Below the pieces are notes generated by a model. The model saw nothing but the letters and a program-made list of their open reading frames with translations. It searched no databases and was not told where the DNA came from. This document shows positions 16,545 to 60,708 of a DNA stretch of 64,000 bases, one piece after another. The stretch is from Bolinopsis microptera (lineage: Eukaryota; Ctenophora; Tentaculata; Lobata; Bolinopsidae), in assembly GCF_026151205.1 (NCBI RefSeq), contig NC_087073.1:14217837-14281836 (forward strand), given 5' to 3'. The position numbers and the translations under genes are program-made. Numbering within the stretch: position 1 is the stretch's first letter; each line of letters starts with the position of its first letter.

Positions 16545-17252
16545 AATTATCGTTTTCGGCCCCATGCAAACTTAGTACTACGGATGGATCGAAAAAGTGT
16601 GACCTTGCGGTTGATGGAAACACCAGGACAACTTCTACCTATAGCTGTGCGACGTCAAAAAGTCAGGCAAACCCATGGCTTTGGGTGGATCTGGGTGACT
16701 ACCACTGGGTTTCTCAGGTAAGATCTGACAACTACCCACATTCTTCAGCTGCCATTGAGTTTTAAAACACACTATTGTTCACTCTACCCTCCATCTTCTC
16801 AGTGATCTTACTTATTTGACCCCTCTTGACCCCTCTTGACCCCTATTGACCCCTCTTGACCCCTCTTGACCCCTCTTGACCCCTCTTGACCCCTCTTAAC
16901 CCCTCTTGACTGTCAGGTAGTAGTGTACGGACCGACATCCCTAAAACAGTTCACTGTTTATGTTGGAAACAGCACTACCGACCCCACTAGTGGGATCCAG
17001 TGTGGTGGAACTTACGATATTGCTTCTGGAACTACTAACGTGAGTTACTGAATGTTAGTAAGTCTCAAACTGTTAAAAAATGAAACGATGAATAAGTTTC
17101 AACTCCTTTATCTAAGAACAGGTTACCTATAAATCTGATGATGTCCCAGGAACAAGTGAACTGTGACCCTGTGATCAGAGGACGGTATGTAGCCATCACT
17201 CTCGCTAATACCGCAGTTCTAACTGTATGTGAACTTATGGTCTACGGAGCTG
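16545..17252 (+). CDS. Giant gene exons 1-3: F5/8 type C-like domain
   Basis: Exons 16545-16717, 16917-17039, 17150-17252. Discoidin-type motifs: [12 protein letters not shown], then [21 protein letters not shown] and FTVYVGNS, ending [10 protein letters not shown]. This fold usually binds glycans or phospholipids. Exon 3 starts after GTCCCAG; the earlier AACAG acceptor would run into TGA. The first exon needs one base from an upstream exon. Confidence 0.8.
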
Positions 17253-20200
17253 GTTAGTTACATTTCAATCCAAATTAGAGGCCTGAAACTGGTATTTTTG
17301 TTATATCTCAAATCATAAATAATGTTCTTTGTACCAAATTCTAGAACTCTCTCCAATTTTCAGACTTGTTTAACGTGATGGGAGCCCAAGGAGCAGACTG
17401 TAACACAGCCTGTAACGAACAAGGCCTCACCTGTAACACACACATTAATTCACGGGATGACTCTAAAATAATGAACAACGCTGGGATTCCCTTCTGTTAC
17501 AGATACAGTAGCTCTAATACATGGTTCAATGATGATCAACCTGGATATGTGGCCGGTACTTCTGATCCTAACAGATACAGATGTATTGGCTTCAAGTCTG
17601 TTCCTGATTCTGTTCCTTGTACTGGAAATTATTGGTCTGTTCAGAGACTCTGTGCGTGTGACAACTCCGGTAAGTTCATGAAAGTTTTAGATTAACCTTG
17701 TATTCTATTTTAGAATCATATGACTATAAAATTATCTTATGGGTTCTGATGATGGTGCTCAACTTAACCTCCTCTCTTACCACCCCAGGAAGTGTATCTG
17801 CGAGAGCTTGTGAGACTCACACCCCTACCTGCTCCTCTGTTGCTGTTATTCAGTGTCCTGCAGGTACGGACCTACAGCAATCAATGCTTTAAAAGTTTAA
17901 ACTTCACAACATTTACATTTCACAGCATGGACGTAATGTGATTGGTTACCTCTTACTCATCATAAAATAAATCAAACGTTTTAAAAATTCAAACTGTTTA
18001 AATAACTTTTCTCACCACTTTTCTCATCTTTTACTCCACTTCCAGGGATGCAGATAGTCATAAATGATGCCCAGTTTAACGGGACGAGCTGTGGAATAGA
18101 CGCTACAGACAAGGTAAAAGCAATGTGTCACAACAAGGACAGATGTCAACTGTACGCTAGTTCAGCTACAATTGGGAACAGTGGATGTAATCCTGGAACT
18201 GCTACTCTAGTCGTGGGATACTCTTGTAAAAGTAAGGGACTGGGATAAAGTTTACTGTTGCAGTGTATTGCACGGTATTGTTCCACCGTTTATCGGAGGA
18301 AACCAAACCTGAACTAACAGTTAACTACCAATATTTCCTTTTTAATATCCTTTTGCTTAAGTTCCTGATCCTGACCGGGTGTTTACTTGTTACAGTTCCG
18401 ATCCCATGTGCTCTTGGAGAGTTCACCTGCGATAACGGAGAGTGTATATCAGACCACAAGAGATGTGATGGAACTACAGACTGTGGAGATGGTAGTGATG
18501 AGATCTGCTCCTTCATGGGTCAGTATGAGGAGGGAGGTATTAGGGATTTGTCGCTCTATTTTAGCTATTTAGAGGAGGGTTCAGGAGTTATCTCTTGGAT
18601 GGCACTGGTAGTTACAGTAGCTGTAGTGGTGAGATGATTATGATTTGAATTTAAAATCTGTCTTTATAACCACCTCCTGCCCCAGACATCTCAATGGGAT
18701 CTAAGTGTAAATCCCTGACCACATTCTACGAGAACGTGTGTGACAGAGTAGTGGACGGTAACGAGAACTCGGACTACTACGCGGGCAGTTGTTTCCACAG
18801 CGAGATGGATATTAAGAACCCCTGGGTACAGATTGATCTGGGCAAGACATCACAAGTGGACCAGATTACTATTGTTAACAGGTACGTTTGTTGAAATGGT
18901 TTAACAAAATAAAAAAGAATTATTGAAAAAGAAATAGTTCGGTATTTCATTTATTGTTTGGTTTATCCGTGGAGCAAGATTTGGCTACCCGTTTAAACCA
19001 CAATAATAACATTTGTCTTGTGCACGGAATCGCACGGTTCTGCACGCCAGCATGCTCGGTATCGCACGGTTCAGCATTCTAGCATGCACGGTTCAGCACT
19101 CCAGCATGCACAAAAGGTTCCCATCCATCTTCCCAGGAATCCGTCTCTTGGCAGACTTAGTTCTTATCAAACAATGAACTATCTTTTTTGCTTTGTTTCC
19201 TTATCTTATCGCAGCTCTCATATTTCTACTTTTCCCAAATTCTGGTCCCGTGTTAATCAAATTATACGGCACCAGTTTCTGCATGGGTTTTAGAAGACAT
19301 CGACACTGTTATGAAACATGAAAACGTTCGATGAAGTCATCGAGTAGAGTTTGATAAACTAGTCGGCAGTCCTCACGTGAACAAGTGCTGTCTTTGTGTA
19401 CAGTCCTGGAATTTTGGGAGGGGTGGGAAAGGAATTTAAATTTGAAATGTTTCTCTTATCGAACGTATGACGTCACACTCGTGACCCACCAATCTATACA
19501 GGAATGATAATTGTTGGTATGTCTCATTATCATCGACTATCATGTGAAACATAAATAAAGGTCTGAAAATTGGTCTGCTATGGAGATAGATAATTTTACC
19601 AAAGAAAAACCGTTCTGAAAGATGTATATCAATAGCATCAACTAAATATAATGTAAAGAACTACCAACATTCCTCATCTCTTTTTTTTTAATATCGTAGA
19701 AACCTGGAAAAGCAGCCATCGTAGACTTAACAACAAATCAAAATCAAGCAATATTGTTGATATCTCAATTGCCCATCTTTACAAATCCGTGGCAACTTCT
19801 TAAACCAACTTCACCCCGACCTGGAACGTGTTCACCTCAACCTGACACGTGTTCTCCTCAACCTGACACGTGTTCTCCTCAACCTGACACGTGTTCTCCT
19901 CAACCTGACACGTGTTCTCCTCAACCTGACACGTGTTCTCCTCAACCTGACACGTGCTCTCCTCAACCTCACACGTGTTCATCTCAACCTCACACGTGTT
20001 ATCCTCAACCTGACACGTGTTCTCCTCAACCTGACACGTGTTCTCCTCAACCTGACACGTGTTCTCCTCAACCTGACACGTGTTCTCCTCAGGATGGAAT
20101 GCACTTACTGTGAGGGTCGTATCAACCCCTTCCGACTCTACGTTGGGGACACCACAGACCCGGACAAGATGACACTATCTGAGGCTTGCCAGGGAAAAGT

Positions 20201-23200
20201 GTTCAACATTCCCACTGGACAATCTACTTACGATGTCAAGTGCAACAAAAAAGGTTTAATATGTTCCTATACATTATACAAATCAACTAGGAAAATAATT
20301 ATGCAGTCTAACCTAAAAAGGAAATGGTATGTGTTGGTGACAAAACTCCACCTTCAGGCCAATACGTTACCATCTACCTTCCTGGAGACAAACGAACCCT
20401 GAACTTCTGTGAGATGACAGTGAAGACGAAGGTGAACGGTCTGGAGTGTAGTACTAATGTTGATAACACGTACTATGTAAACGGAAACACTTACCAGCTC
20501 ATGTGCCCCGCTTGTGCTACTACAGGTACGTTTTGCCTGATCAATCATGGTCGGTCTGTTTTATTCAGCTAAATACAGATCTAACGTACACTGCTTTTAT
20601 TATTGACAAAATAAGGTTGCACAACTGTTTTGTGGTGTGAGTAGTCGATAATCTGATAGGATTAAGACACCCTCTGTTCCAACACCCCTCCTCTACACAG
20701 GTTCAGTGTACGGTACAGGAACATACGCAGCCCGGTCCTCAGTCTGCACTTCTGCAATACACTCTGGGGCTATATCTCCGGAGGGAGGTTGCATCTACGC
20801 TACTATTGGAGCTGGAGCTGCTAACTTCAGAGGCAGCACTCAGAACGGAGTCACCAGTCAAGAGTAAGGGGAGATTTCGAGAAATGTTTGGAGAATAGAC
20901 AAAGCAAAAAACAGATGTCTCTGATTTTGATTTTCTTACGTTGGAGGTAAATTCTTCGATGATCGTAAGTCTGACGTAGCTCAACCATAACTCGTCCCAA
21001 TTTCAGTTATGGTGGACTGAGTAAGTCGTTTGATGTAGCAGCATGCTCAGGAACCATCTCAAAGTCAGTGTGCCAGACCCCAGGAGTAGGATCCTGTACT
21101 AACAACACCATGATCATACAGTGTCCTAAGGACATGGTCCTCCTCATTGAAACTGCTTCTTACGGAATAGCTCCCAGCTGCAGTGCTCCAGATACATTCC
21201 AAATCGTATGTTTGCTAGATAGTGTTGGAGATGATTGGTATAATAGTTATTAAAATCAAAGAAACACTTTAATGTAAGAGTTAATCTTTGGTCTCAAGTT
21301 AAGATGAGTAGAGCTAGAGTACTAGGGTAAGCTCACTTTAACACCTCTGATATTCCCAGGTAAGAGAGAAATGTAGTCACAGTAACTCTTGTAAACTCTC
21401 TGCTAACAACAACATGTTCGGAGATCCCTGCACTGGAAACAAACAGCTTACCGTGTCTTACTACTGCCAAGGTGAGCTTTTTAGAGGATTTGTCATTGAT
21501 CTTATAAATTACTTGCGTAAATACAATTTTAAATTTATGCAACGTCTAAGAAAGCAATTTTAAAATGAATTCCAACAACTTAAAGATATACGACTATACC
21601 AGTATCATAATAATGCATATACCAGAAACTCCTGAAGATAACCCTATCTCCCCCTCCTCAGTGTCCGCTCCTTGTCCTACGAGCGCATTCGCCTGCGGTT
21701 CTGGTCAATGTGTTGACCACGCCCTTGTGTGTGATGGAAAGCTGGACTGTTATGACGGGAGTGATGAGAACTCAACAAACTGTGGTATGTGTCTTGAAGA
21801 TTCCTTGTTTTTTGGTGAACTAGTTGTTTTCATTTGTCATTTAGTCTCTGCGTGGGAGGTATTCTGAATATGTAGTCTGGTTTATATTATGAATTTATCT
21901 TTCATTCAGTGGGAGGCTGTAATTTCGACAAAGGAGGTTTCTGTGATTGGAAACAGTCAGCTGGTGACGATCTAAAATTCTATCTGGACTCAAGTGATAT
22001 CTACAACAACTACGATACTGGTCCTCCTCATGAGCATACCAACCCGGTGGCACTTCCTGATAAGGACTGCAAAACCTGGAAAAAAGGTGTCTGAATTATG
22101 AAGAAGTCGTTGATCAATGAAACTTTTTTTCAATTCAAGAGAAATAAGATCAGAAAAGTGTATACCAATTTTTAATTTGTGGTTTTTGATCGTATGCGTA
22201 ATTCTCTGATTTTAAACCCACCAAATAAAAATGAATGTTAAAATATTAACAATTGAACCCCTCGTAGGTCTAGAATACCGTGGTACTGAAAGTGTCACGA
22301 TGTACGGTAACATTTGCCAACGTTGGAGTGCTCAGAAACCTCAGACTAACCCCTACATCCCCGCGTCGGCGTACGCAAGCAAGGGTCTGGGAGACCACAG
22401 CTTCTGCAGGAACCCGGACGGCAAGGCTGGAGGACCCTGGTGTTATACCACGAAAACTAATGTTGTGTGGGAGTATTGTGATATCCCCGTCTGTGGTGAG
22501 TGGTTCTAAAGTGATCGCTCTGTTTTTAAGCAACATAATGTTTTTCAAACTTTAGCAACATTAGCAGGGTTCCTTCCTACCTCTTATCTACTTTAGCAAC
22601 ATTAGCAGGGTTCCTACCTTTTATCTACTGTCACCCTCTCCAGGAAAGTTCGCCTTTCTACCGAACGTAAACCGGCAACCAGACGAAGCAGCAATAATAT
22701 ACCTGACCATGACCAACACTTCACCTCGGTGTACCATGACCTTCTGGTACAGCATGTACGGATCTGGTATTGGTACTCTCAGTGTTATCGGAGATAGTGC
22801 TACTGTCTGGTCTAAAACTGGTCAGTTTAGTGAAAATATATTCGACATAATTGCAAAACAAACATACGAAAATGTCGAATAATCTTCGGAGGCTGTTTTG
22901 AATAAGATTGTTATATTTAAATTTCCAGGTAATCAAGGTCATGGTTGGAGCAAAGCCTACGTCTTCATAGGCCAAGAGGACTCTTACACTGTCGACATAA
23001 AAGCAACAGTTGGCATGTCACCAAATTCTAGAATAGCGTTTGACGACATAGCGATGCTGCACTGTCACGACACTGCTCCAGCAGCTTGTTCTGACTTCGA
23101 GTTCAAGTGCAGTACCAGCACCATGTGTATCCCTGGTGAGAAGAAGTGTAATGGTATTCAGGACTGCTCTGATGGCTCAGATGAACAGGGGTGTCGTAAG

Positions 23201-26200
23201 TACCTTCTAACTTATTTATTTTCTTCCTTAGACTTAGAACTAGAATCTGCTTACGGCTTGGAAACGTTTTACTTCCACATTAAATGGCATAACATATTAC
23301 CTTATCAAAACTCACAACAGGTTAATTAATTCCCGATACTCACTAGCCCCTCTCCTTCAGCCCCCGTTGGAAACTGTAACTTCGAGAACGACATGTGCGG
23401 TTACAAGCACTCCAAGTCCTCCGACTTTAACTTCGTGATGCAGAAAGGTGCTGATGCTATGGAGAACAACGGACCACTGCATGATCACACGACTGAAACT
23501 AATCAAGGTAGCGTATAAGTTCCGTCAGATAAAGAACCTCATCTCATCCAACGATAACACATGAATGTGACCATGTACCTATATGTGGTTCTTCCTCAAG
23601 CCGTCCACTTAATTAATCTTTAAAGTCCGCTCTCTTACCCTAACCCCTCCTCCTCTCAGGTCACTACATGTACGCGGAAGCAGCCGGGAAAGCGAGTGGA
23701 GCTAAAGCGACCCTCTCCTCCCCATGGATGACTCTGAACACGGACTGCACTGTCAGGTTCTCCTACTACCTCTACGGAGACAACGCTGGTTCTCTCTGGC
23801 TCAACAATACCAACGCTTACAGCACTTCCTCTGTGAGTGGACTGATATGATTATCTGTTGATTACGAATGTATTTAAAAGTCTTGTTTTGGTTATAATGT
23901 CGAACTCAATTTTGTTCCTCATAATAATGCTGAACAAACTGTCTCCTCAGGTATGGAACAGCACTGCCTCCAGTGCAGACAGACACTGGCAGTCTGCTCA
24001 AGTCAGTGTCGGACGTGGATCCCAGTCTCAGCTTGTGTTTGAGGCTGTTATGGATGGAGACATGTCTGATATAGCTTTAGATGACATTCAACTGATCAAC
24101 TGTGGAGGTAACGTCTCAATATTTTAAATTCAGGTGTCTCACAGTTTAGGACATTGTACAGCTCAAAAACTCTTACTCTTAGAAACATATCATGAAACTT
24201 TCTTTTAATTTAGAGATGTTTCGGGATTTGTAGTCTAGTTTGAAATTGTTTATTGCAGTGAATCCACTGTGTTCGGACCAACAGTTTGGGTGTAACGATC
24301 CTACTTGTGTGAGTTTGGATAAAGTATGTGACTTCGAGAACGACTGTACTGGTGGAGAGGACGAGGATGTTTGTGGTTCGTTTATTCAATGTCTTGAGAA
24401 CTGAATAGCGGTTTATAGATTATTGATAATGAGCAAGTCTAATTCAGAATGATCTTCACAGATTGCACCACATTTTGTTTATAGATTTATGATCAGTATC
24501 TTTGACTCACCTCCTCTCCCTGCAGGAACATGCTCATTTGAAGATGGTAGCTGTGGATTCAGCAACTCTGAGGATGATACCTTCGACTGGTCCAGGAACT
24601 CTCTGGGAGATGAGAAGTTCTACAGCACCATGCCTGCTGACCATACTGTACCTGGTGAGGGTCCTAAATCTGTAGAGTTGTCATTTAATTGTATTTTCTT
24701 GTTAAAATAGGCGGAGATTTGTCTTCGCAAGTCCTACATCCTGTTTACATGAAAATACCAATATTTTGATGTTCAATCCTCCTCAGCTGCTGACGATCTA
24801 GTTCTAAATTTCCCGACCCCGAGCTCGAAGAACTACGCGCTGCTGAAGACCAACATGCCATCTCTAACTGAATTCACCGTGTGTGCTTGGGCGCAGAGTA
24901 ATGATAAGGACAGCAAAGGTTACTTCTTCAGTCTGGCTACCGGCAAAGGAGATGCTGCTAATCAGATTGTTCTCAGTGCTCTCAATAGTCTGAATGTTGC
25001 GGTTTTGAGCTCTTTCCAACAAACTATGGTAAGAGTCACTATGAGCACTACCTTGATGAAGTTCAAGAAAAGTGCCAGTTTTAATTTAGCCAGTTTTGTT
25101 AATTTATTTCATATCAATATTTCAACCAACAATTTACCGAACAATATACGAACCGAATTGTGGAAACATTTCACTAATCCCGCTCTCTCCTTAGATCCCA
25201 CTGAACGATGGAGGTTGGCATTACATATGTATGACCTGGGCAAGTGGCAGTGGAGACGTGAACATTTACGTGGACGGCGCACTTGGTAAAACTTTCACCA
25301 GTATTGCTCAAGGACAGAATATTCCGGCCGGTGGCACGGTCGTTCTCGGACAGGTTAGAGGAGGATTGTTATAGAATTGTAGAATGTGGCTAATTTTACT
25401 AAGTCTTAATGCTTTAATACTATTCATTTAATAACGAACTAGCAGTATAGATACGTTGTAGTTTCCAAATGCCAAGATTACATTCAAATAATCAATATAT
25501 AATTTACTAGGATCAAGATTCTGTGGGAGGAGGATTTGCCACAAAACAAGCTTTCACCGGTAAACTTTACGGAGTGTACGTGTGGAAGAAGGTTCTGAGC
25601 GTTGGTGATATTCTCTCTTTCGCTAGCGACTGCTCGGTAAGTACTCAACATCATGTGTTTCTGACCTGGCTCAAAATACACATTCAGATTTACAACTTCA
25701 ATTGTTATTCTTGATGCTTGAATTAGATATTATCCAATTGCTTTTCAGACTTCGATATCGAGTACGGACTTGGTTTTCCAGTACGGTTCTATCAACAGCA
25801 ACTTGTTCGGAGGTGTGACCTCTCCAATGGAGACTAAACCTATCCTAGGAGCTTGCGGTTAGTTGAAAGGTCCTTTTTAATTAGAATAGTCATCAATAAC
25901 GGTACTCAGTATAAAGAGTAAAGGTAGTAGAGAAGCACCTATTTATAGCTCGACCCCTTTGCTATTATCTATAGCTAATGTAAAACGTTCTACAGGACAT
26001 TACATGTACATCAAGACGGAAGGATTCCCCAAGCCGAACTTTGCAACTCTAGTAACTCCCAAGTTTGCAGTCACCGGACCGTCCTGTCGACTCAAGTTCT
26101 GGTACAATATAGATGGAATTGGAAAGATCGGTTCTCTAGACGTGAGTTTCAGTGCTCTTATAATTGTGCAGTTGTCTACTAGAGTACTAAATAATCAAGT

Positions 26201-29200
26201 ATGAACGGATAGGTGAGAAAGCAGTAGATTGTTAGGGACTGAGAATTCTACTAAAATCATTCCATTATCACTTGGAGAAGTACAACGAAACAAATTTCCA
26301 GGTAGTAGCTGTTTTGGAGAACAGCACCTCCCTTCTCTGGTCCATGGGCGGTAAGCAAGGATCTGAGTGGAAGGAAGCTAACGTAGCTATCGGACAACAC
26401 GGCAACTACCACATCGGTATCAGGGCTAACACTGATATCGGCAGTCCAGAGGGCCACATGGCTATTGATGATACCCAGTTCTTCGGGTGTTCGATTAAGA
26501 CGTACAAGACACCAAAGAGGATAGGATGTTACCGTCACAACACGACAGTATCAGGGTTACCCACCATCGTCAGACAGTACTTCTACCCTCCCTACGGTAT
26601 CAGACAGCTCTGTGAAGAGGCTGCTCTCAAGGGAGGCTACACGGTACGTTTTATTATTAGCTGTGTTACAGAATTTGGTTTTATGTGCTTTTGTTTTATA
26701 ATCTTAGGATAAAATTCAGGTGCCGAAAACACCTTTAAACTAGTTCGATGAGGAATAATCATGACTAACTATAACTCGTTTCTTTCCGCAGACCTTTGGT
26801 ATCCTGAACGGTCGTGAGTGTCGCTCCGGACCTGATGCTATGAACACATACGATAAGGACGGTAAGAGCACCTCCTGTAACGGTGACGCGGGCAGCTATG
26901 ACGCTTACACCGTGTTTATGTTCGAGGACGAGAAAGCTCCCCCACTGACCCCCGCTACGATAGTAACCCCACCTGCTAGTGGGGTGGTACCTGGAGGGTT
27001 CAGCTTCACTCTGACTTGTGGAACTACTGGATATCCCCAACCTGCTGTTGTGTGGACTAAAGATGCAGTCAGTCTTCCTGATGACAACAACTTTAAGGTA
27101 GGCCTTGATGGTAGAGCTTTTAGTGATAATGGTAGGAGTGTATGATTGAGTTATGATATGATGAAATATTCCTCACATTGTTGTCGTTGTAACAGAACCC
27201 ATAGCAAAACCTGTTTCTCATCCTCAGATTGACAGTAACGGGACTCTGATAATCACGAATGTTGTCTCCGAATACTCTGGCACTTACATGTGTAGCGCAG
27301 AGAACGGTCTCGGATCAGACTCTGCTTCAGCTACTTTCACTGTTCTGGGAGAGTGTACGTTTGAGACGGACATGTGTTTCTTTAGTCAGAGCTCGGATGA
27401 TAAATTCGATTGGATAAGACAAACTGGCAAAACTGTCAGCGTAGACACCGGGCCTACCAACGATCACACTATCGGAAAAAGTAAGTTTCGTTTTTATCTT
27501 CAAAGTGCAACAGTAAGTTCCACTTTCAAGGTAGCAGTGTGTAAATTTTCCCATCCTATATACAACTCTTGAACTTGAAATTATTTTTAAACAATCCAGT
27601 AACTTCCGTCCGTTACTCACACCACAACCCTTGTAGCTGGAACACAGTGCCCTAAAGCATATCCCAACGTGTATTACAATGGAGAATATTGCTGCAAGTA
27701 CGACAAAGAAAGCACCTACCCAGCCCAGGGTGATCTCTGTGATGGGGGTCCTATTGGGTTCGACAGTCTCTGCTGTCAGGGCAACGCTTATAGATCATGT
27801 TCTAGTGCTCCTTGCTCTAGCTATGGATCTGCTGGTTCGTCTTAACAGCTGTGGTGTACTTATTGAACAAATAAGAAAAACGATTTCTTAATAAGAGTGT
27901 GTTAATGTTAATTTTAAAATGTTAATTTAGTTACAAAATTGCTTATATTTAAAAATCACCAATACTCTAACATCCCAGGTTACTACATGTACATCGAGGC
28001 ATCAGGCCGCCGACCCGGAGACAACGCTATCCTGGCCACTCCAACTGTAGACCGTGCCGGACCACGATGTGAGATGAACTTTTGGTATCATATGATGGGA
28101 ACCAAGATGGGGCATCTCAACGTCTGGATGACTGCCAATAATGTTAAGACTCTGCTCATGAAGAAATCGTTTGACCAGGGCGCTGATGTTTGGTTTGAGA
28201 GCGGTGCTTTTATTGGTGCTCAGACAAACTTCTCCATTATGGTCGAAGGTTTGATGATACGATTATTGTCATTACATTCATAAGCTATGTACTTTATTCG
28301 CGCTCATAATCTCTGAATTTAAAATAAACCCACTCCACCTTCCTGTAAAAAGAAAATTCCTGTAGGAGTGGTTGGAACATCCTACACAAGTGACCTGGCA
28401 ATAGACGATGTTGGGTTCAGACACTGTGGCGAGAACGAGCTCCCAGTTTGTAACTTTGCGGAGTTTACTTGCGGTAATGGTCGGTGCATCCCACAAGATC
28501 TATTGTGTGACTTGGTGGACCACTGCTGGGACGGCAGTGACGAGAACGACTGTGGTAAGTGGAAGAAAATCAAGGTTATATAAAATGAGCACTTTGGAAC
28601 TGACTCATTCGTTTCTTTTCTAGCTAATTGCGAAACGGTTGTTCGTGTATACTGTATAAGTGTATAGAATAGTGTATTTAATTCACTAAATTCCTTGCTT
28701 CACTGACATAACACCTCTCAGATAACCACCCTGTTAACATTGGTTGCTACACTGAAGTACCTGATAACCCTGTATTCCCTGAAAAGTTAGGAGATTTCTC
28801 TCAAGCTCATAACGCGACCACTGCTTGTGCTCAGTTGGCTCTTGCTAAGGGTTACAAGGTAAGACTTGTTGTATCTTCCACTCATTCGGAGGCAGCTTAC
28901 AGTTGAACTTGTCTATTTAGGATAACTTTTGTTTCAAATATTTTAATGCCGTATTACAATGATTTGTGGAACGCGCTTCCGATAGTCATTTACATATTTT
29001 CACACTTAATTGGAATTCTAATTGGATATCATAATGATCATGATACTGATTATTTTCCATGGTCGGTCACTCTAATAGGTCACATGATCAGATCCCATAA
29101 TCAGATCACATGATCACATCTTGACACCACACTAAAGACCACATTATCGTGAGCGCCTTTGGAGGTGGTCTGTGAGTTGACACCAGTCCATTAACGATAT

Positions 29201-32200
29201 GTGAACTGTCCTGGTATCAAGCAGATATTTGACACCACCCACAGGGCCAGTATAAATACCCCCTCCGACTCAGTACTATTATCCAATTCTCTTACTTCAT
29301 CTTATAACGATATCAACTAAACTACAAACTCTCAAAATGGTTTTCTCTCTCCCTAAAATCTCTCTCCCAACTCTGAGACACCGCAAAGTTGCCCCTGCTT
29401 TCTGCTCGTGCACTGCTACACAGAAGAGCGTCCGAAGAAGGGAAACTCCTCTTGTTCTCCTTCCTGCTGGTTCCAAACCTAACACACAAGCTTTCTACGC
29501 AAACCCTCCTAAGATATCCAGTCAGGATTCCTTCATTCCCAAATATACCTCAACTGGGATATCTGATGAAGATTTGGAAGAAACTAAATCCTGCCAGACC
29601 ACTGGATGCACCACCCTGTACATCACAGCTTCAGCTCAGAGGAACTTTGTTGCCCCTATAATCGAACTAACTGACGGAACAGTCACACCAATGAACTTTT
29701 CACACGATGAGATCGTATCTGATGACACCCCTGCAAACTTCCTGTTCTGCACTCAGAACTCCGAAGATATCCAACCTTGTCCAGTCATGTCCGGACAGAG
29801 CAAGAAGTCAACTATAGGCAGATTCATGAAAAGAAACCTGACAAGAGGACGAACATTCCTGAGGAAGATGAAGAAACCAAGATCCCTCCCTGTCTACCCT
29901 GCTGGAAGAAGCTCTGAGCGAAGGACGATGAAAAGAAGTCTCCCCTCCATGCCCGGATCATTTGTTTGAATGAATATTAACTAGTGTGAATATTTGAGTG
30001 TGACTATTTTATAATTATAATTCTTATCCGTTAAACTCAGAAATTCATTTATTATATCAATAAACTTCATATCAATAAACTTCATATCAATAAACTTCAT
30101 ATCAAAAAACTTCATATCAATAAACTTCATATCAATAAACTTCATATCAATAAACTTCATATCAATAAACTTCATATCAATAAACTTCATATTTTCATTT
30201 ATTATATCAGTAAACTTCATATCAAAAAACTTCATATCAATAAACTTCATATCAATAAACTTCATATTTTCATTTATTATATCAGTAAACTTCATATCAA
30301 AAAACTTCATATCAATAAACTTCATATCAATAAACTTCATATCAATAAACTTCATATCAATAAACTTCATATCAATAAACTTCATATCAATAAACTTCAT
30401 ATTCATAAACTTCATATTCATAAACTTCATATTCATAAACTTCATATTCATAAACTTCATATTACCTACTTACTTGTGTAGGTCTGTAGAAGCATTAGAA
30501 TCGGGCGTTGCCTGCCACAGGTTATCCCGAATTTAGAAGCTTGCTTTAATAATAATACTTCATATCAATAAACTTCATATTGATAAACTTCATATCATAA
30601 CTTCATATCAAACTCGGGCGTTGCCTGCCACAGGCTATCCCGAATTTAGAAGCTTGCCTTAATAATAATACTTCATATCAATAAACTTCATATCAATAAA
30701 CTTCATATTCATAAACTTCATATCAATAAACTTCATATTCATAAACTTCATATTCAAAAACTTCATATTAATAAACTTCATATTCATAAACTTCATATTC
30801 ATAAACTTCATATTCATAAACTTCATATTCATAAACTTCATATTCATAAACTTCATATTCATAAACTTCATATCCATAAACTTCATATTCATAAACGTCA
30901 TATTCATACTAAATTTGTTTTTGCAAACAAAGCATTGCAAAGTGTAATATGGGTTAACATAAACTGGTCAGCCACAAGTATGGTAATTTTACTTTCTAAT
31001 CCCCAGGCATTTGCCCTGCAAAGTGGTGGATTGTGCTACTCGGGACCCAACTGTGACAAGGACTACTCTAAGTACGGACTCTCCTACAGTTGTGTTAATG
31101 GACTTGGTGGTTTCAGAGCCAATGATGTCTACATGTTTGGACAAGGTTTGAACTTACTGTTTTGATGTATTTTCTATCAAATAAACGTTTTACCAATTCA
31201 CCTTGAACAATGAATTAGTTAACAATGTGTACCTAAGCAATTGTGGTAATAGCTAAAACCAACCTATTTAGATGGATCCTGCAACTTTGAGCACGGAACC
31301 TGTAAGTGGAGCAGCACTACAACCCTCCAGTGGACCCGACATCATGGTCCCAGCAACCCTCCCTTTACTGGACCACCCACTGATCACACTCAGGGTAACT
31401 CATATCACTCATTTAGCTCCTCTTTCACTTTTTGTTTGGTCTGATTTCGAGTCACTCCTCTCGACTTGGAATGCCACTAAATAACAAGTTGGGCATTTTC
31501 AGGAACACCAGCAGGGAACTACATGCTTCTGAATGCCACAGCAGGCACCCCCGGTGACATCGGGACCCTTGTCTCACACCAGATAGAAAACACTGGTCCT
31601 CTCTGCGCTATTAGCTTCTGGTACAACATGAAGGGTAGCGGTGTCGGTAAACTTCAGGTCAGTTACCGGGTTGGCAAATTAAAAATACGTAATTACTCGC
31701 TGCTTCAGGTGAAGTTAAATGGGTTTAGTTCAAGTCGTTCATCTACAGTCTAGACTGTAGTTTATAAGCGCAGTTTCTGTTTACTTGTGACCATGATCAA
31801 TGTCGGTTAAATCTCCATTCTGTAGGTGTACGTGACGGACTCAGCCGGACAAGTTGAGCTCTGGTCTCAGGTCGGTTCAAGTGGGGACGGCTGGAGATAC
31901 GCAGGTTTCTTCGTCGGAGAGAAGATGCAAGCTAACATCACCTTCATGGGTATTCTTGGCAGAAACAAATACGGAGATATTGCCCTTGATGACATCCATT
32001 TCTCTAGGTAATTTTATCGCTGACAAAATGATATCTAAAAGATAAAGTTAAAGAAATTTTAAAAATCCATCTCAACTTCCTAAAGATTTTTCTTGTGATT
32101 CTCAACCCCTCCAGATGCGGGGCGGAACACAGTAACCTGTACTTCGTGGGGGATCTTGGTGAGGACTGTGACACAGTTTGTGAGAACAACCAGCTGCTCT

Positions 32201-35200
32201 GCACTGGTAAAGTTGCTACTGATAACAAGCTGGATCTGTTCACTGAGCTGGGTATCACTTGTACTCCTAACACCAGACCTTATCAATACGAGTGAGTTGT
32301 CACTTGTCTTTATCAGTGTGGAAACGGTTTGATCGCTTATCTGAGATTATGTGTGGAGATAAAATGAGCGTATTCGTCTTGTTATAGAAAAGGGTTATCA
32401 TTTAAATTTGTATAACTACAATTTTGGTAATGAAACTCCTCTGAATAAGATCATTCATTTTAATCTCTTCTAGTGACGAACCTTGTTACCACGACGACCC
32501 TCGGTCGCCTAACTACGGAGAATGTATCGGATTTATCAATGTGCCTGACAGTGTGCCATGCTCTGGAAGTTATTCTTCTTCTAGACGTCTCTGTGGCTGC
32601 AAACTCAGTGACGGTTGTCAAGGTAATATTAACAGCTTTTTAATCAATATTTATTATTTGAGTCATGGATGAAAATCTAAAATCGATGTTGTCGGCCAAT
32701 TTGTGATCGCGGAAAATATACTGAACTTTGGGAATACGAATATCATTTTCACTAAAATATACCGATTAAGTTTTACGATCTCTTCTGAATACCAAATTTT
32801 CTCAAGGTGCTGACTCGGAGCGCGTCGACTGTTTCCCCGGTAACTCGGGAGTTTCCCAAGACCAGTGTCTCCGGGCTGATTGTTGCTATGACGAGACTCT
32901 CACTGCATCCGGAATCCACTGCTTCAAGAGGAATCTTACTGAAGTTTGCCCTGTTGGTAAGTCATGTTTAATTAATACAATAAAGAAGACGATTAAGGAT
33001 ATAGATTTGCACTTGAAATTGTAAATCTCAAAATTGGATGTACTGTTGGATGTAATGGGAATTATGAAAATACAGCCAGTTTATTAACCATGACCCGTTC
33101 CCAGGTGAGAGAGCGTGTAAGAGCGGACAGTGCATCCCAGAAGGATTGTTCTGTAACTATGAAGCTGGTGACTGTTTCGACGACACTGACGAAGACGGTT
33201 GTGAGCAAGCCTTCGGGGACTGTAACTTTGAGGGAGATTTGTGTGGGTGGAGCGATCATAAGCGGGACCAGTTTGACTGGACCCGGCACAGAGGTTCCAC
33301 TGGTACTAGCAGCACCGGTCCTAAATACGATCATACAAGAGGATCACCCAAAGGTATGTGAAATGTTTGAAAAGAGCTGATGGTCTATGAAGAGTTTCCT
33401 GGTTTAATAACTTCTATTTCCTATGCCTGTTTCGTGATTTCTCAAGTTTTAACGAACGGAACCCTCCAAGGTTACTACATGTATATAGAGGCTTCCCTAC
33501 CTCGTATCTCCGGTGATAAAGCTATCCTGAAATCTCCCGCCATGTCCGCTGAAGGACAGTGTACTCTGAACTTCTGGTACACCATGTACGGGAACACTAT
33601 CGGTGATCTCAACGTTCATCTGATAAACGAAACTGGGCAGTTCGTGGTAAGTGCTCTATAAATAGGGAGATATAGTTTTTATGATATCAGTGAAGTTGAT
33701 GGAATTTGCATAAATAATTTTATTGAAAGAAATATTGGCTTTAAGTCATGTTTGTTCTCAGATCTGGTCAAAGAGTGGTAATCAAGGCGCGGACTGGATC
33801 TCAGCATCCTATCAACTACCGACAATGTCAAAGTTCCAAATCATGTTCGAAGGTTTCAATGCACACATATTCCACTTGAAATAAATTAGTAATTGAACGA
33901 TTTGATATAATAATGATAATTTTGATATAATAATGATAATTTTGATATATTAATGATAATTTTGATATAATAATTTTGATATAATATTGGACACATTTAT
34001 TTTGGATAGAATATTCTAAAACTTAAAGCTCAAACCCAACCCTGCTCAGGAGTGAGAGGATACAGTGTAGGGGCAGATATAGCAATAGACGACGTCTCAT
34101 TCTCCGGCTGCACTCTCGCTAGTCTATGTCCTGAGGACGCTTTCACTTGTGGAGGTTTAGAGTGTATTCACAAAGACGAACAGTGCGACTTTATCAACCA
34201 GTGCTCTGACGGAGAGGATGAAGCTTATTGTGGTAAGTTTGGTTGCTACCGAAGAGATTCTTATTCTAGAGATGTTTCTTGCCAATCCTTAAATGTGTTA
34301 AATTATCATATATTCTCGAGTCTTTTCGACGATCGCATCTAATGTTAATGCGCCCAATCTCAGGCTCTTGTGACTTCGAGAACGGAATCTGTGGTCTGAT
34401 CCAGAGTGTGTACGACGACTTCGACTTCACACGTCAGACAGGACAAACAGCGAGTAAAGGAACAGGACCTAGCACTGACCACACTACAGGATCTGCAGAC
34501 GGACACTACATCTACATAGAGTCCTCCTACCCCCAGCAGGCTGGAGACAAGGCTGAGATCATGACTCCCGTTTACAGGGGCTCTGCTCCTAAGTGTAGGA
34601 TGACATTTGCTTATCACATGTACGGGAATACTATCGGAACACTGGAGGTGAGGGTTTAGTATTTTACTTTGAAAATAAACTGCACTTGTAACTTATTTAT
34701 TAATCCATCTGAGTACTTTGATTTATAACTACTAATCCTCTCTCTAATTTGTGTAAACCTGTGTTATTCCCTCAAAATAACACTCGATTAGTAACTATCC
34801 ATCGCCTCCCTAGGTGAGAGTGCTCTCTACTGCTACCGGTGAAAGCAAGACAGTTTGGCAGCACTCTGGTACTAGCGGAGACGCTTGGTTTGAGACAGCT
34901 GTTGCTATTGGAGCTCAAAACATGTTCCAGGTGGTCTTCTCGGCTACCGTCCGCAACAATGCTGGAGATATCGCTATTGATGACATCTCATTCATTGACT
35001 GCAGTCCTGGAAACTTCTATGGCCCGGTTGATTGTTCGTTTGAGAGTGATTTCTGCAACTACCTCAACCAACAGCACGAGGTACACTAGATTCTATCAAA
35101 ACATTTAGAGATTGGATACAAAATTGAAATACTATACAGCTCGTGATGATATCTACTGACTTCAAAACTTCGAGAAAAAAACTATAAACTTTTTCTCCCC

Positions 35201-38200
35201 TCAGGACAACTTTGACTGGACGAGGATTCAGGGTACCACCCCTAGTTGGGACACAGGACCAGGATTTGATCACACCTATAACGACACCTTCGGTCACTTC
35301 GCCTACATCGAGACGTCCTATCCTAGGATTCCAGACGATAAGGCTATCTTGACCAGTCCTTGGATTAAGACTGAGAATCCTGCAACTGGTAAATATACCC
35401 CTATAAACTACTCCTATCACTCAGAATTAATCGTTACACTTTCTGTATCATACGTTCCCCTCTTATTTCATTGAAGCTAAGTTAGTTCAATTTCTTTATC
35501 TCTCCTGAATCTTGACCAGGTATCTACGCTGGATACAACTGTTCGTTCAGTTTCTGGTACCACATGTACGGAGCTGATGTAGAAAGTCTTGAGGTCATCA
35601 TGAAGACTGCTGCTGGTGAGCTTTATTCACATCTCCTTGAAATTGCTAGCTGTTTCTTTTGATTTCATATCGTAATTTCTAGACATCGAGTAGTAGAAGT
35701 AAATATATAAAATCATGTCTGTTCTGTAATTGAAATCACCACTTAAAGCTGGGAAATGCAATTCAAGGAACTAACCTCTTGCTGGGCAGGTAACACGACG
35801 ATAGTGATGGAGAAAGGAGATCAAGGAGACGCCTGGAAAGAGGGCTCAGCTGTTATTAACGAACACGACGCAGCTCGGTTCATGTTTGTGGGTACTAGTG
35901 GGAAAAGTTTCTCCGGAGACATTGCCATCGACGACATCTCTGTAAAGACCTGTCTCATAACTCCGCTCTGTAACGACAAGGATTTCATGTGCCTCACTAC
36001 TCCTAAGTTCGTGAACTCTATGGGAGTATTCCTGTAGAAATTGTATTGGTGTTTTTAGACATAGATCTTTGGGTCTAATTATTTCTGAATTTAGTGCTCG
36101 ATCACCTTCTAGTTATAACCTCAACCCTATCAGGTGTATCACCCCTTACAAAGTGTGCAACTTCTACGATGACTGCGGTGACAGTACAGACGAGAACAGC
36201 TGTGGAGACTGTGACTTTGAGAGGGACTATTGTGGTTGGACCTCCCCTGAGAACTACAGGCTCTGGGCCCGGTTCAGAGGATCTACTTTTACTAACGGTA
36301 CCGGCCCTGATACTGACCACACTACTGGCAAAGCTAACGGTTAGTTCAAACTTGTAGCTGTTCCCCTTCTACATATAATACTTGACACCAGAGCTGACTG
36401 AGAGCCTTGATTTTCATCATGGTCTCTTAGCGTTAATATTTTGAGATTTTAAGATGTTGGTTCCTAAATTTCAATTTATGTTTGAATATGTTTTAGTAAA
36501 TGTTCAAATATCAGGTTTCTACATGCTATTCGAAGCCCATCTGGGTGTTCGACAAGGAGAGCAAGGATTACTAACAAGTCCAGTATTCATGGAGAGTAGT
36601 GCTACCTGCAAGATAGACTTCTACTACCACATGAAGGGAAAGAATATGGGAATTCTAGAGCTTTTCATTGTCGATGAAAACGATGGTAGGTTCTCTTTGT
36701 GGTTCTCACTAGAATGTCTGAACATTATTTTAGTTCAAATCTTTCCTTTATCAATCCGTACAAAATTATGAATTTGCCCCCTGATAACCTGCCTTACCCT
36801 GATATTATTTACAGTGAAGACCTCTTTGTGGAAGAAGGATACGGAACAAGGCAGTGACTGGATGTACGACACTGCTCAGATCGGACACAAACGGAACTTC
36901 TACATCGAGTTCGTAGCGACCAAGGGTTTGGGAAGTCAGGGTGATATAGCTCTGGACGACATTAAGTTCTCCAACTGTGCCATGGGACCAAGCGCCAACC
37001 TGACCATCAAGGACATGGCTGTTAACAAAACAGTCGGTGTGGATACAGATGTGATTCTGGACTTCACTTACGATGGTGCTCCACTAGCTTATGTTACCTG
37101 GACTAAAGATGGAGATGCTCTGCCAACTTCTCCTAGATTCTCAGTCGGCATGGACGGTTAGTTCATTTTCAATGGTATTTTGGTATTCGGTTGTGAGTTG
37201 TCTGAAATAGTTGACATTGCAACACATGAGAACGTTTATAATTCAACTTTTAATCTAATGATTCTAATTCTAATGTTTGGCAGGGTCTCTGTCTATCATG
37301 GCAACTGCAGCGGAAGACTCGGGAGTATACACGGTGAAGATCAGTAATGGTTTCAGTGAAGCTACAGGACAAACACAGTTATTTATTGCTGTTGGATCCT
37401 GTGACTTTGAGACCAATCTCTGTGGTTTGAAACTCAGCTACAAGCCTTCCTTTTACTTTGAACGAACCAAGGACAGTGGACTCACTGATCATACTACAAG
37501 TGGAAAGGGTGAGTTTATCTCTAATTCTGTGTTTGATATCTCCGTAACACTGATAACAGTTTTGTTTGCAATCACAACCATAACGAATTGTGATAACGTG
37601 ATCTGAAATGTAAACTCCTCAGGTTACATCCTAGCTCTGCAAGCCAACAACCCCGGACCTGTCATCTCAGCGACCATAACCTCGCCACTCTACCGGGTGA
37701 AGTATGCCAGCTACTATGATACCTGCAAGATGCAGTTCTATTACCATCTCAACGGCACTGCTGGTCCCATCAAGGTCAGAGTCAGGGACATGGCTTCTGC
37801 TGTCCCGAAATGGAAAACTATCTGGTCAAAGTAAGTGATGTCTTAGATTTAATCGAAATTCCTGTGATGAATATGAAATTAGTTTATTTATGGCATTTGA
37901 ACTTATTTTAGTTAATGGTCCAAATCATGACCATAAAGGTACACCATCCTGTATATTTGTTTGACGTCGTTTTTTTACTGGACCTCGTGCGATATCACTA
38001 CACTGCTAATTTTCAGGATCCCACAAGGTAACGGATGGAAAGGAATAGCTCTTTCCTCAGAACTCGGATACAGAAACACTCTGATGTTCCAGATACAGGC
38101 CAACTCTAAGAAGGGCTTCAACTCTGTGATCGGAGTAGACGATCTGCAACTCACTGGCTGCCAAGGTAATATTGTATAGATAGTAGAATGGTTAATGCTT

Positions 38201-41200
38201 CTCCCCTTATTTGTAATTGTATCAGTTGCCTTGTCAAGGACCCCTCTAACAGTTCACCCCTCAGTTACACCGTACTGTCTGAAGGACGAGTTCACCTGTC
38301 CGACCGGGTCTTGTCTTAACAAGGATCAGGTCTGTGACTTTACCAAACAGTGCGGAAATGGAGAAGACGAGGCCCAATGCGGTGAGTGTTGATGAAATGG
38401 GGCCCATAAAAGTTCTATTTGGTGTTTCAATGTCTGCAGCTCTTTTGATAGTATCACCATTATGATAAGTGTTATCATACCATAATAACAATAAACTTTG
38501 TAAATCCTTTAATTATGAAATCTCGTCTACAGGAGCGGGTAGTTTTGACGATGATATGAACGGTTGGCTGCCTGACATGGAGTCAGCAGTAGGAATCTGG
38601 GACCGAACAACTGGTCAGGACGGCTTCACTGACCACACCACCGGAAAAGGAGGTTCCTACATAGAGGTGGAGACAATCAAGCTGAAGCGGCGCGACTTCG
38701 CCTCCCTTGTCTCTCCTAACTTCGCCTCCTCCGACAATGGCTGCAAGATGTCCCTGTACTATGCTATCTGGGGCACGAATACTGTGGGTAACATCACCCT
38801 CCATCTGAAGACAACTAATGGGGACATCTTGCTGTGGAATGTTGCTGGGAACGGAAACTCGGTTAGTTTGACTTTGAGAACACTGCAGAGACACATTTAT
38901 ACAGTTTCTGGTCCACTTCGTAAAATACAATTATAAGGTGAAAGAATAAATAGATTTTATCGCTTATATAGTGCTTTGCCAGATCATAATTGTTCTATTT
39001 ATAGAAGAAGCAGTGGACAAAGGCAGAGATCCTTATCGGAGCAAGAGTTAACTTCAGGTTGGAGCTACGAGGAGAGTCTGGAGGGCCAGTCCTTGGCTTC
39101 CTTGCTGTTGATGACATATCTTACGTTGGCTGTGACCACGGTATAGCTTTCAATGATTTACATTCTTTTTCTGTTCTAGATACATAAATTGGTTTTATAA
39201 TATTGAAATTGAATGTGTATATTGTGTGGTATCTAATATAATTGATCCTCTGACACGATCCTGAGTCCTGACTGTAACCATGCCTAGGACCACCACAGCA
39301 AGCTGTTATAACGGTTAACCCAATGCCGAAGACAGTTTTACTTGGAGATGATGTCACTTTTGCTTGCAAAGCCACTGGTGTGCCAACACCTAACATCATT
39401 TGGCAAAAAGACGGGGTTGACATCGCCATTGGTGGACAGTAAGTTTTTTATGGGGGGTCATTACTCTCGGACAGCAAGTTTTAATTTATTTCAATTCAGC
39501 TGAACTTCGATTAAGAATTATCCACTTGATAATGTACAAATCTCAAGCGAGATGGCTGATGAGAAAGTTTCACTTCGAACTTTTCAGTTACTCACTATCA
39601 CATGATTTCGTTCTGACTGTCACCAACGTGGAGAAGGATACTGCTGGTAACTACAGATGCCTCGCTAAAAACCCTCAGAGTGTTGCTAAGTCTAAGATCG
39701 CCAAACTCACTGTCAATAGTAAGTGTCAATATTCGCTGCAGGGTCACTTTGACTTCATTTTTAAACGGCGGATTAATTATGATAGTCGATTTACAGATCA
39801 ATTTTGATTTGAAGCACGAGTGGGATTTAAAATAAAATTTGCTGTTTTTCATTTTATGTTATGTATTTAATTTTATGATTTCTTCCTCTTAACCTGACCT
39901 TGTTACCCAACTCCTCCTCCTATAGATCCCCCGGGAAGCTGCGACTTCGAGGACGGACTGTGCGACCTCAGAGACGTTGAGAGGGATGATGACTTCAACT
40001 GGATCCGACAGAAGGGTCACACTCCATCCATTCACACCGGACCCGTCGCTGATCATACCCTCAAAACTCAAGAAGGTGAGATTTGTGTGTTTAAACAAGA
40101 TTGAGCAAATGAAACATCTTTTGAAGAAATTTTTGTAAAACACTTACATAACAATCGGAAAATTTTAAGATAATGATACAAAGAATATAAAATCAAATTT
40201 AACAAATCGGTAAATATCAGACAATCAATAAAATAGGACCATTTTAAAAGAAAGAAAAAGCAATCACATCTAACAAGTAATAAGTAATTATCGATTCTTG
40301 TATTCAGTAAACACGGCGTCTTCAGCCTTCATCGCACAGATTTTCCTCTAAACAATCTGCTTACCTTACTCGGGATTATTACGACGGGTTTATTAACGAC
40401 CGGTTAAAATATGGTTCGGGAAAAATATGGCGAAATTGCTCAAAACCCACCACATTTCCCCGGTCGCCATTTTACCGGTGTCCAACCTTTCAATTTTAGA
40501 TTCAAAAATTTTGTCTCAGGTGTAAATTTCCTTATTAGAGATAAGCAAGTTTAGAAATTTTCGCATTGCTAAAACTTGTGAAACAAGTCGAATTATCAAT
40601 AATTGTTGAAAGTAGACAGAAATAATGACTTGTGGTTAATCAAACTAGATGGAAATAATTTTTAACATTAGAAGCGTGACTGATGAAACTGATTCATGAT
40701 ATTGACAGTTTTAATTAATTCAAGTTTTAATTTAACTGTTACTTTAACTTTGAGTCCTATTTCATTATGTAGAGATAGTCAATACCTAAGAAATTAAAAA
40801 TTGGCCTATTTAAATCAACTTTGACAATAAGGATATATGACAAGAATTGGGCAAAAAGGTGAATTTTTTGCAATTTTAGCCAAATGAAGTCGAAAAACCT
40901 ACAACAAGTGTCCCAATAGTCTTCTTTAGTGAGTATAAGACAACGATTAAAATATGAGCACCCATACCCCTTGGGAACCCTAAAAGCTGAGACGGCGGGT
41001 TTATTAACGACCGGTGAAAATGTGGTTCGGGAAAAATATGGCGAAATTACCCTAAACCCGCCACTTTATCCCGGTCATAATAATCCAGAGTAAGGTATTC
41101 AAAAACTTGACTTACTATTTATCACAGTCTTAGTTGAAAATTTACACGCGATCCTTCCAAGTGGGCATCGAGTAAAAATACTTTACTATTGTCTCACTTT

Positions 41201-60413: not shown

Positions 60414-60474
60414 GTTATGGAACTGCTGGAGCAACGAGTGCCGAAGGCACGAGTTCCGACAGCTGTTCCATAAC
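60414..60474. repeat. Imperfect hairpin with CGAGTGCCGAAGGCACGAG core
   Basis: GTTATGGAAC (60414-60423) pairs with GTTCCATAAC (60465-60474), and the centre CGAGTGCC-GAA-GGCACGAG pairs perfectly around a 3-base loop. Confidence 0.7.
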
Positions 60475-60708
60475 TTACTTATGGTACAGCACATCAAGAT
60501 AGATAAGGCTACAATTTGCGACCAAAAAAACCAAATTTGGACTTAATTAACAATTTAAAAAACACGTTTTTATATTTTCTTCCGTAACGCTGACCAATCA
60601 GAGACGATCCACGTGGCCTATAGCATGATCACTCTTGCATGTCACGTGAAATATTTCCTCTATTTCATTGGATGCTTACTTGTGGGCACGTGTAAAACCG
60701 GTTTTTAG

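What the first reader, a model, noticed from the sequence alone, without database searches (positions are those of the whole stretch)
21910..28436. One intron position inside the MAM fold has accepted three unrelated domains
In MAM 1, MAM 3 and MAM 4 the two halves of the MAM domain are separated by, in turn, a kringle exon (22268-22495), four pentraxin exons (24787-25857) and a CC-rich exon (27637-27834). Each insert starts and ends in phase 1 and sits between the DHT element and the G(H/Y)YMY element, which in most other MAM copies of this gene are joined directly across a phase-1 intron. Exon shuffling between domains is well known. Three separate insertions into the same loop of one fold, within one gene, is not something I know to be described. 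It implies the loop tolerates large guests and that this intron is a repeated shuffling target.
Basis: partly seen in the sequence, partly recalled or inferred. Interest (0 to 1): 0.92.

Follow-up and report, generated by a model that had tools for sequence, protein, structure and literature searches.

The report
Guest domains nested inside MAM domains
A giant animal gene, probably of a comb jelly, has several times let whole foreign protein domains settle inside one loop of its repeated MAM domain, always at the same spot, which makes that loop a likely natural docking place for added parts.

Summary
The window lies in a giant gene modelled from 16576 to 120653 (199 exons, 12,806 residues, 52 MAM copies). 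Six of 52 MAM copies are split by a guest, all between DHT and GxY: kringle (MAM 1), pentraxin (MAM 3) and an 8-cysteine "CC" module (MAM 4) in the window; two kringles (MAM 35), a ricin-B-like domain (MAM 39) and a kringle (MAM 48) beyond it. With the guest left out, five of six give one full-length Pfam MAM match. 29 of 46 guest-free copies have a phase-1 intron there. The CC module has 63 genome matches; 23 of 23 distinct copies examined read as class 1-1 exons. Best explanation: repeated exon shuffling into an old phase-1 intron in a surface loop, leaving one MAM fold with a side-displayed guest. Corrections: MAM 1's kringle begins inside the upstream exon; skipping would rebuild a normal MAM only at MAM 3 of the cases tested; against other phase-1 introns, six of six here is borderline (P = 0.05). 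No cDNA and no fold of a split MAM was available.

The parts
16576..64000 (+). Window part of the giant MAM gene; the model runs on to 120653 (199 exons, 12,806 aa, 52 MAM copies, ending in Ephrin_rec_like repeats, a hydrophobic segment and a short tail). The first exon modelled is not the true start.
   Evidence: own gene finder plus hand corrections; Pfam of the ends
21910..22086 (+). MAM 1 first half (to HEHT); its last 19 bases (22068-22086) already code for the first cysteine and start of the kringle
22268..22495 (+). Guest of MAM 1: rest of the kringle
   Evidence: Pfam Kringle E=7e-22; exon edges
22644..22820 (+). MAM 1 second half, first exon (GKFAFL...)
22929..23195 (+). MAM 1 end plus an LDLa module
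23361..24107 (+). MAM 2: guest-free comparator; phase-1 intron 23508-23659 at the same place ([13 protein letters not shown])
24526..24654 (+). MAM 3 first half (to ADHTVP)
24787..25857 (+). Guest of MAM 3: pentraxin in four exons (24787-25028, 25195-25353, 25511-25636, 25749-25857); outer phases 1-1, inner introns phase 0
   Evidence: Pfam Pentaxin E=5.6e-29; edges and phases
25996..26643 (+). MAM 3 second half (25996-26141 and start of 26302-26643), followed by the start of a WSC-like domain
27228..27480 (+). End of an Ig domain and MAM 4 first half (to NDHTIGK)
27637..27834 (+). Guest of MAM 4: CC module, 8 cysteines, one class 1-1 exon; no Pfam family
27979..28554 (+). MAM 4 second half (27979-28248 and start of 28366-28554) plus an LDLa-like module (by eye)

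Best explanation
The gene codes for a very long, probably membrane-anchored extracellular protein built of MAM domains with LDLa, Ig and other modules. Inside the MAM fold, a phase-1 intron splits the conserved glycine of the GxY motif, at the end of a long loop directly before a beta strand. Class 1-1 exon sets from elsewhere in the genome were inserted into this intron on at least four occasions (one per guest family) and probably six, giving kringle, pentraxin, CC, double-kringle, ricin-B-like and kringle guests in six of 52 MAM copies. Shown: gene anatomy by computation, phases, guest identities (ricin-B just under the cut-off, CC unnamed), that the split always falls at the same profile position, that both halves together make one full-length MAM match in five of six, and that first and second halves belong together better than chance as a group. 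Inferred: that the two halves fold into one MAM around the guest, that the guest hangs off the side of the MAM chain without lengthening it (as laminin LF sits in the LE rod), and that it adds a binding face.
For: Open 199-exon chain with a single stop at its end. 6 of 6 splits at profile columns 37-57 of 156, none elsewhere in 52 copies. Pfam guests. Guest left out: full-length MAM in 5 of 6, 84-123 bits against 70-108 with the guest. Phase-1 intron at this place in 29 of 46 guest-free copies; all 28 introns at exactly column 44 split a GGN codon, as Patthy expects of phase-1 proto-splice sites (PMC8001218, passages). CC module with 63 matches; in the 20 loci fetched, 23 of 23 distinct copies, its own included, read as class 1-1 exons. 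First and second MAM halves co-vary over the 52 copies (r=0.21, P=0.0005); the own second half of the six split copies ranks 2, 7, 21, 12, 8, 6 of 52, rank-sum P=0.0016. The site is residue 45, last of the coil 25-45 before strand 46-51, in a model with mean pLDDT 89.1 that matches solved MAMs. The four kringle guests do not group among 44 kringles (0% of 200 bootstrap trees); the MAM 48 kringle is 67% identical to a kringle on C9 (L064). In MAM 39 and MAM 48 the exon layout rules out a clean skip.
Against: No transcript evidence. No structure of a split MAM. MAM 48 with the guest left out has no Pfam MAM match and only 9.4 and 33.3 bits with my own profile. At MAM 3, skipping all four pentraxin exons would rebuild a normal MAM in frame, so that guest could be an optional cassette. 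The MAM tree is poorly resolved (5 of 49 branches well supported) and puts MAM 1, MAM 3 and MAM 48 together with middling support (82/78), so one shared early event for some of them is not excluded. MAM 4's halves show little co-variation (rank 21 of 52). P = 0.05 against phase-1 places only. Only 9 of the 28 column-44 junctions have the full AG|G; the rest have C, G or T before the G|G.
Confidence: 0.8

Rival explanations
1. The guests are alternative cassettes: exons at the MAM loop that are included only in some transcripts, so the usual product has intact MAM domains.
For: Guest exons can be skipped in frame in MAM 1, 3, 4 and 35; at MAM 3 the skip rebuilds DHTVP-GHYMY.
Against: At MAM 39 skipping the second guest exon shifts the frame and the first part shares an exon with the MAM half; at MAM 48 the guest shares exons with both halves. 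At MAM 1 a skip leaves a lone kringle cysteine; at MAM 4 and 35 it puts Ser or Arg in place of the conserved Gly.
Confidence: 0.12
2. One or a few early insertions were multiplied by duplication of MAM units, and the guest was later exchanged or converted, so the number of independent insertions is smaller than six.
For: MAM 1, 3 and 48 fall together with middling support (82/78; inner fork 95/45) in the MAM tree. MAM 35b and MAM 48 kringles share an inner phase-1 intron at what looks by eye like the same place.
Against: Four unrelated guest families need at least four insertions or exchanges whatever the tree. In BLAST each of the four guest kringles has a non-guest kringle as best match, and they do not group in any of 200 bootstrap trees. 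MAM 39 groups with guest-free MAM 15, 19 and 45 (96/82).
Confidence: 0.2
3. The halves are not one domain: half-MAM modules were shuffled independently and guests merely lie between unrelated halves.
For: The DHT/GxY intron would make half-MAMs into exon units; MAM 4 halves show little co-variation.
Against: First and second halves alternate along the 52 copies, with part of the first half unmatched in MAM 18 and MAM 21; halves co-vary; the joined halves score higher as one full-length MAM than split, in 5 of 6.
Confidence: 0.05
4. Gene-model artefact: guest exons belong to other genes or are chance open frames in introns.
For: The exons were joined by computation only.
Against: Guest exons are on the same strand, in the right phases, with consensus splice sites; the kringle and pentraxin guests have strong family matches, and both ends fit the flanking halves without a stop. 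Guests in MAM 39 and 48 share exons with MAM sequence.
Confidence: 0.03

Closest known systems
Laminin L4 and LF domains in LE repeats (PMC5338690, passages)
   Same: A globular beta-sandwich sits inside (L4), or directly after a truncated (LF), small repeat module; for LF the neighbouring LE5 and LE6 interact as if contiguous in sequence.
   Different: There related guests enter a cysteine-rich LE module; here four unrelated guest families enter the same loop of a larger beta-sandwich in different copies of one gene.
Fibronectin type II repeats inside the gelatinase catalytic domain; I domain inside the integrin alpha propeller (recalled, not looked up)
   Same: Whole domain nested in a loop of another fold.
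   Different: One guest type at the site of one host domain (recalled).
Class 1-1 module exon shuffling in animals (PMC8001218 and PMC3927616, passages)
   Same: Symmetrical class 1-1 exon sets enter existing phase-1 introns.
   Different: In the passages seen, modules are bounded by introns at their edges; here the receiving intron lies inside a fold and has been used repeatedly.
MAM and LDLa repeat proteins: MALRD1 (recalled; one search listed one unrelated paper) and coral skeletal 'MAM and LDL-receptor' proteins (search listing only)
   Same: Arrays of MAM and LDLa modules (recalled).
   Different: Whether their MAM domains hold guests was not tested here.

Membership tests
MAM domain (PF00629) | Full-length profile match with the guest left out | tested here: met
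   5 of 6 split copies, 84-123 bits, positions 1 to 152-157 of 158; cut points chosen by hand; MAM 48 no match
MAM domain (PF00629) | MAM jelly-roll fold for guest-free copies of this gene | tested here: met
   Model of one copy, MAM 45, pLDDT 89.1; the first 25 Foldseek matches are chains of MAM-bearing proteins: enteropeptidase, SR-C, neuropilin-1, meprins, astacin LAST-MAM, PTPRK, PTP mu
MAM domain (PF00629) | Split copies fold as one MAM around the guest | not testable with these tools
Class 1-1 exon shuffling | Guest flanked by phase-1 introns on both sides | tested here: inconclusive
   Met in MAM 3, 4 and 35; MAM 1 and 39 only on the 3' side; MAM 48 on neither
Class 1-1 exon shuffling | Same module occurs elsewhere as a class 1-1 exon | tested here: met
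   CC module: 23 of 23 distinct copies (own copy included) in the 20 loci fetched of 63 matches; splice sites picked by a weight matrix trained on this gene, some with low scores. Not tested for kringle, pentraxin or ricin-B
Kringle (PF00051) | Pfam match over the curated cut-off | tested here: met
   MAM 1 78 bits, MAM 35 112 bits over two stretches, MAM 48 89.9 bits; cut-off 34.3
Pentraxin (PF00354) | Pfam match over the curated cut-off | tested here: met
   101.7 bits, cut-off 25, positions 2-169 of 194
Ricin-B lectin (PF00652) | Pfam match over the curated cut-off | tested here: inconclusive
   28.9 bits against 29 for the guest alone (E=1.5e-06), positions 10-126 of 126; four related genome copies 18.7-28.3 bits, also under the cut-off
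Any Pfam or solved family for the CC module | Profile or sequence match | tested here: not met
   Best Pfam match of 22 members E=0.032 (BTK motif, one member); best PDB match E=0.065 (ITK)

The most novel reading that the evidence does not exclude
The DHT/GxY loop of the MAM fold is a natural insertion dock: an old phase-1 intron in a tolerant surface loop has let one gene mount unrelated binding domains sideways on a MAM rod, six times, without changing the rod. MAM would then be a host fold whose copies serve as sockets, and this gene a natural experiment in domain insertion with 46 unoccupied controls.
Probability: 0.45. Interest if true: 0.8.

Novelty: new variant of a known kind. Interest (0 to 1): 0.62.

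Why it matters
Nested domains are usually single old events whose steps are lost. Here occupied and unoccupied copies of the same fold lie side by side in one gene, so one can ask which loops accept guests, whether the limit is intron phase or fold tolerance, and how often insertion succeeds. It also points to a site, tried out by nature, for domain-insertion design in MAM domains.

Tried and rejected
Hot spot beyond availability: tested by counting. 29 phase-1 introns at the site in guest-free copies plus the six guest sites make 35 places here, against 21 phase-1 introns elsewhere in MAM copies: all six here P = 0.05; against introns of any phase (73 elsewhere) P = 0.0008. I therefore do not claim a strong hot spot.

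Hidden guests in the long introns at this site: those of MAM 12, 19, 26 and 42 are 2.9-5.0 kb long; plus-strand open frames of 60 residues or more were listed and read by eye only; I recognised no guest module, and exons that the gene finder had put there were dropped by hand. No profile search was made of them.

The first gene-finder run over-predicted (1085 exons) and was thrown away; the exon penalty was raised. Hand changes to the model: 21 listed exons dropped (false exons in long introns, a nested ORF, wrong gene ends), four put back with edges set by hand, exons before 16500 and after 120500 left out, one GC-AG intron accepted, the last two exons re-joined.

The first kringle tree used minus-strand hits translated on the wrong strand; discarded and redone. 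The MAM tree is poorly resolved. The kringle tree used 40 genomic kringles of the 154 matches counted, picked from the longer contiguous ones.

Fold of the CC module: AlphaFold model with mean pLDDT 45.6, not used further.

Organism: not established. 264.65 Mb in 232 contigs; contigs C1-C13 appear in the searches, and the ten of these whose length was shown measure 15.2-26.2 Mb. This fits Bolinopsis microptera (13 chromosomes, 265 Mb, but 346 scaffolds in the table seen; PMC11797021 and PMC10232365, passages). An attempt to confirm through glutamate receptors against the PDB showed no ctenophore chain that I could recognise among the rows shown (best 60 of 350 and of 253) and no match at E 1e-55 for two others. 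No GFP family match, with no positive control.

Reverse strand: of 13 ORFs of at least 90 residues at 21000-29000, four are on the minus strand, all under 100 residues; a reverse-strand gene-finder run over the window gave a 68-exon chain and a two-exon one that I take as spurious.

A loose LDLa pattern found only 12 copies, clearly an undercount; no LDLa count is claimed.
Full report
What was checked. I read the region, joined the exons by their splice sites and found one open chain from 21662 to 28858, 22 exons, AG and GT at each edge. A small gene finder trained on these exons, with hand corrections, extended the gene to 16576-120653 of the window's coordinates, using flanking DNA of the same contig: 199 exons, 12,806 residues, a single stop at the end. 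The start is not known. By Pfam the ends hold F5/8 C, SUEL lectin, LCCL and LDLa at the front, and six Ephrin_rec_like stretches at the back, followed by a hydrophobic segment and a short tail with NPMY and NPAF (read by eye). WSC-like (under the cut-off), Ig and trefoil domains lie between MAM copies where tested.

MAM copies. A profile built from 38 pattern-picked guest-free copies of the gene finds 58 matches, which are 52 MAM copies, six of them in two pieces. The first pieces end at profile column 40, 41, 43, 43, 45 and 37 and the second start at 57, 40, 43, 43, 39 and 49 of 156 (MAM 1, 3, 4, 35, 39, 48). No copy is split anywhere else. MAM 18 and MAM 21 lack part of the first half in the match.

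Guests. MAM 1: kringle, 78 bits. MAM 3: pentraxin, 101.7 bits. MAM 4: CC module, no Pfam family. MAM 35: two kringles, 112 bits together. MAM 39: ricin-B-like, 25.9 bits in context, 28.9 alone, cut-off 29, with near full-length matches under the cut-off for four related genome copies too. MAM 48: kringle, 89.9 bits. With the guest left out by hand Pfam gives a single MAM match from position 1 to 152-157 of 158 in five of the six, with 84.0, 97.6, 114.7, 110.3 and 122.6 bits against 70.0, 86.4, 100.7, 95.0 and 107.9 before; MAM 48 gives none either way.

The intron. Of 46 guest-free copies, 24 have a phase-1 intron at exactly column 44, five have one at columns 40-42, and 17 have none there. 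All 29 are phase 1. All 28 introns at column 44, four of which are 3' edges of guests, split a glycine codon: 12 GGT, 10 GGA, 4 GGC, 2 GGG; nine of the 28 read AG|G, the others CG|G, GG|G or TG|G. In passages of Patthy's review (PMC8001218) a phase-1 intron at an AG/G proto-splice site is said to split a glycine codon; the glycine fits in all, the full AG|G in nine. Inside MAM copies there are 73 other introns: 41 phase 0, 21 phase 1, 11 phase 2. If six guests were dealt at random over all phase-1 places (29 introns plus the six guest sites here, 21 elsewhere) all six would fall here with P = 0.05; over introns of any phase P = 0.0008. So phase and frequency of this intron explain much of the pattern.

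Edges. The 3' edge is the column-44 intron in MAM 3, 4, 35 and 39 and an intron at the equivalent glycine in MAM 1. The 5' edge is a phase-1 intron in MAM 3, 4 and 35. In MAM 1 the first kringle cysteine is coded before the intron; in MAM 39 the guest begins inside the exon of the first MAM half; in MAM 48 neither edge is an intron, and the first half lies in a 2,071-base exon that also holds three whole MAM copies. Loss of introns after insertion is the simplest reading (inference).

Can guests be skipped? In frame in MAM 1, 3, 4 and 35. MAM 3 would become a normal MAM; MAM 1 would keep a lone cysteine; MAM 4 and 35 would have Ser or Arg for the glycine. In MAM 39 skipping the second guest exon shifts the frame. 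MAM 48 was not tried: its guest shares exons with both halves. So at least two of six guests look obligatory, and one could be optional.

One MAM or two halves? Similarities among first halves and among second halves correlate over the 52 copies (Mantel r = 0.21, P = 0.0005; the script warned of a row without data). For the six split copies the own second half ranks 2, 7, 21, 12, 8 and 6 of 52; the median over guest-free copies is 7.5. A rank sum this low has P = 0.0016 if ranks were independent and uniform. MAM 4 (rank 21) is the weak one.

Sources of guests. The CC module has 63 matches in the genome, its own included. In the 20 loci fetched, 23 distinct copies all read best as class 1-1 exons; a few of the picked sites score low. 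Sixteen columns are invariant over 22 members. The four kringle guests do not group in a tree with 40 other kringles of the genome; in 200 bootstrap trees none puts them together. Their inner introns differ: after the first cysteine in MAM 1, phase 2 in MAM 35a, phase 1 at what looks like one equivalent place in MAM 35b and MAM 48 (by eye). The pentraxin profile has 148 matches in the genome. The MAM tree resolves little; it puts MAM 39 with guest-free copies (96/82) and MAM 1, 3 and 48 together with middling support (82/78). The safe count of insertions is four or more; six is likely.

Where the site lies. A model of guest-free MAM 45, one of the single-exon copies, from ten contiguous sequences has mean pLDDT 89.1; the glycine is residue 45, the last of a coil from 25 to 45, and strand 46-51 follows. 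Foldseek's first 25 matches are chains of known MAM proteins. In the PDB the profile matches 18 distinct chains over 141-171 residues each, which leaves no room for a guest there.

Other MAM genes here. The only other MAM matches listed lie at C2:12.75 Mb (lower bound by the tool's own note), in a gene that reads by eye as an astacin protease with EGF, LDLa and two MAM domains and no guest.

Literature. Laminin L4 domains sit between cysteines 3 and 4 of an LE module, and LF is inserted such that LE5 and LE6 interact as if contiguous (PMC5338690, passages). This is the model for my inference that guests hang off the side. PMC3927616 (passages) states that class 1-1 exons as a rule enter existing phase-1 introns. 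Seven searches on MAM or domain insertion with exon shuffling, kringle, pentraxin, ctenophore or nested domains listed no paper that by title or abstract deals with guests in MAM domains; three lists were cut short, papers such as PMC9848320 and PMC2394772 that hold both 'MAM domain' and 'kringle' were not opened, and subscription papers are not held.

Verdict. The mechanism is known exon shuffling; the repeated nesting of four unrelated guest families at one place of one fold in one gene is a new variant of it. Folding and transcripts remain to be shown.

Noticed in passing
27639-27815 and 62 other matches in the genome (e.g. in L019-L037): CC module: about 59 residues, 8 conserved cysteines, no Pfam or PDB relative found, 23 of 23 distinct copies examined are class 1-1 exons; a candidate new mobile module family.
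   Followed up: partly
29337-29969: Intronless ORF of 210 aa, same strand, inside an intron of the giant gene between the two halves of a WSC-like domain; no Pfam match.
   Followed up: partly
16576-120653 (beyond the window after 64000): The gene is exceptionally long: 52 MAM copies, 12,806 aa, with a hydrophobic segment and a tail carrying NPMY and NPAF.
   Followed up: partly
110086-112156 (in L014): One 2,071-base exon holds three whole MAM copies and half of a split one without their usual introns, but the guest kringle keeps an inner intron: local intron loss.
   Followed up: no
57097-57250: Probable GC-AG intron (donor GCAAGT) needed to join MAM 21 to the following Ig domain.
   Followed up: no
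about 19830-20092: Array of a 21-base repeat (CTCAACCTGACACGTGTTCTC-like, by eye) just before the exon at 20093.
   Followed up: no
63823-65064: Long open frame in a 6 kb intron of the giant gene, starting with a sulfotransferase-looking stretch (by eye); possibly another nested gene.
   Followed up: no
C2:12740001-12756000 (L016, L017): Second MAM gene: by eye an astacin protease with EGF, LDLa and two MAM domains largely in one exon, no guests.
   Followed up: partly
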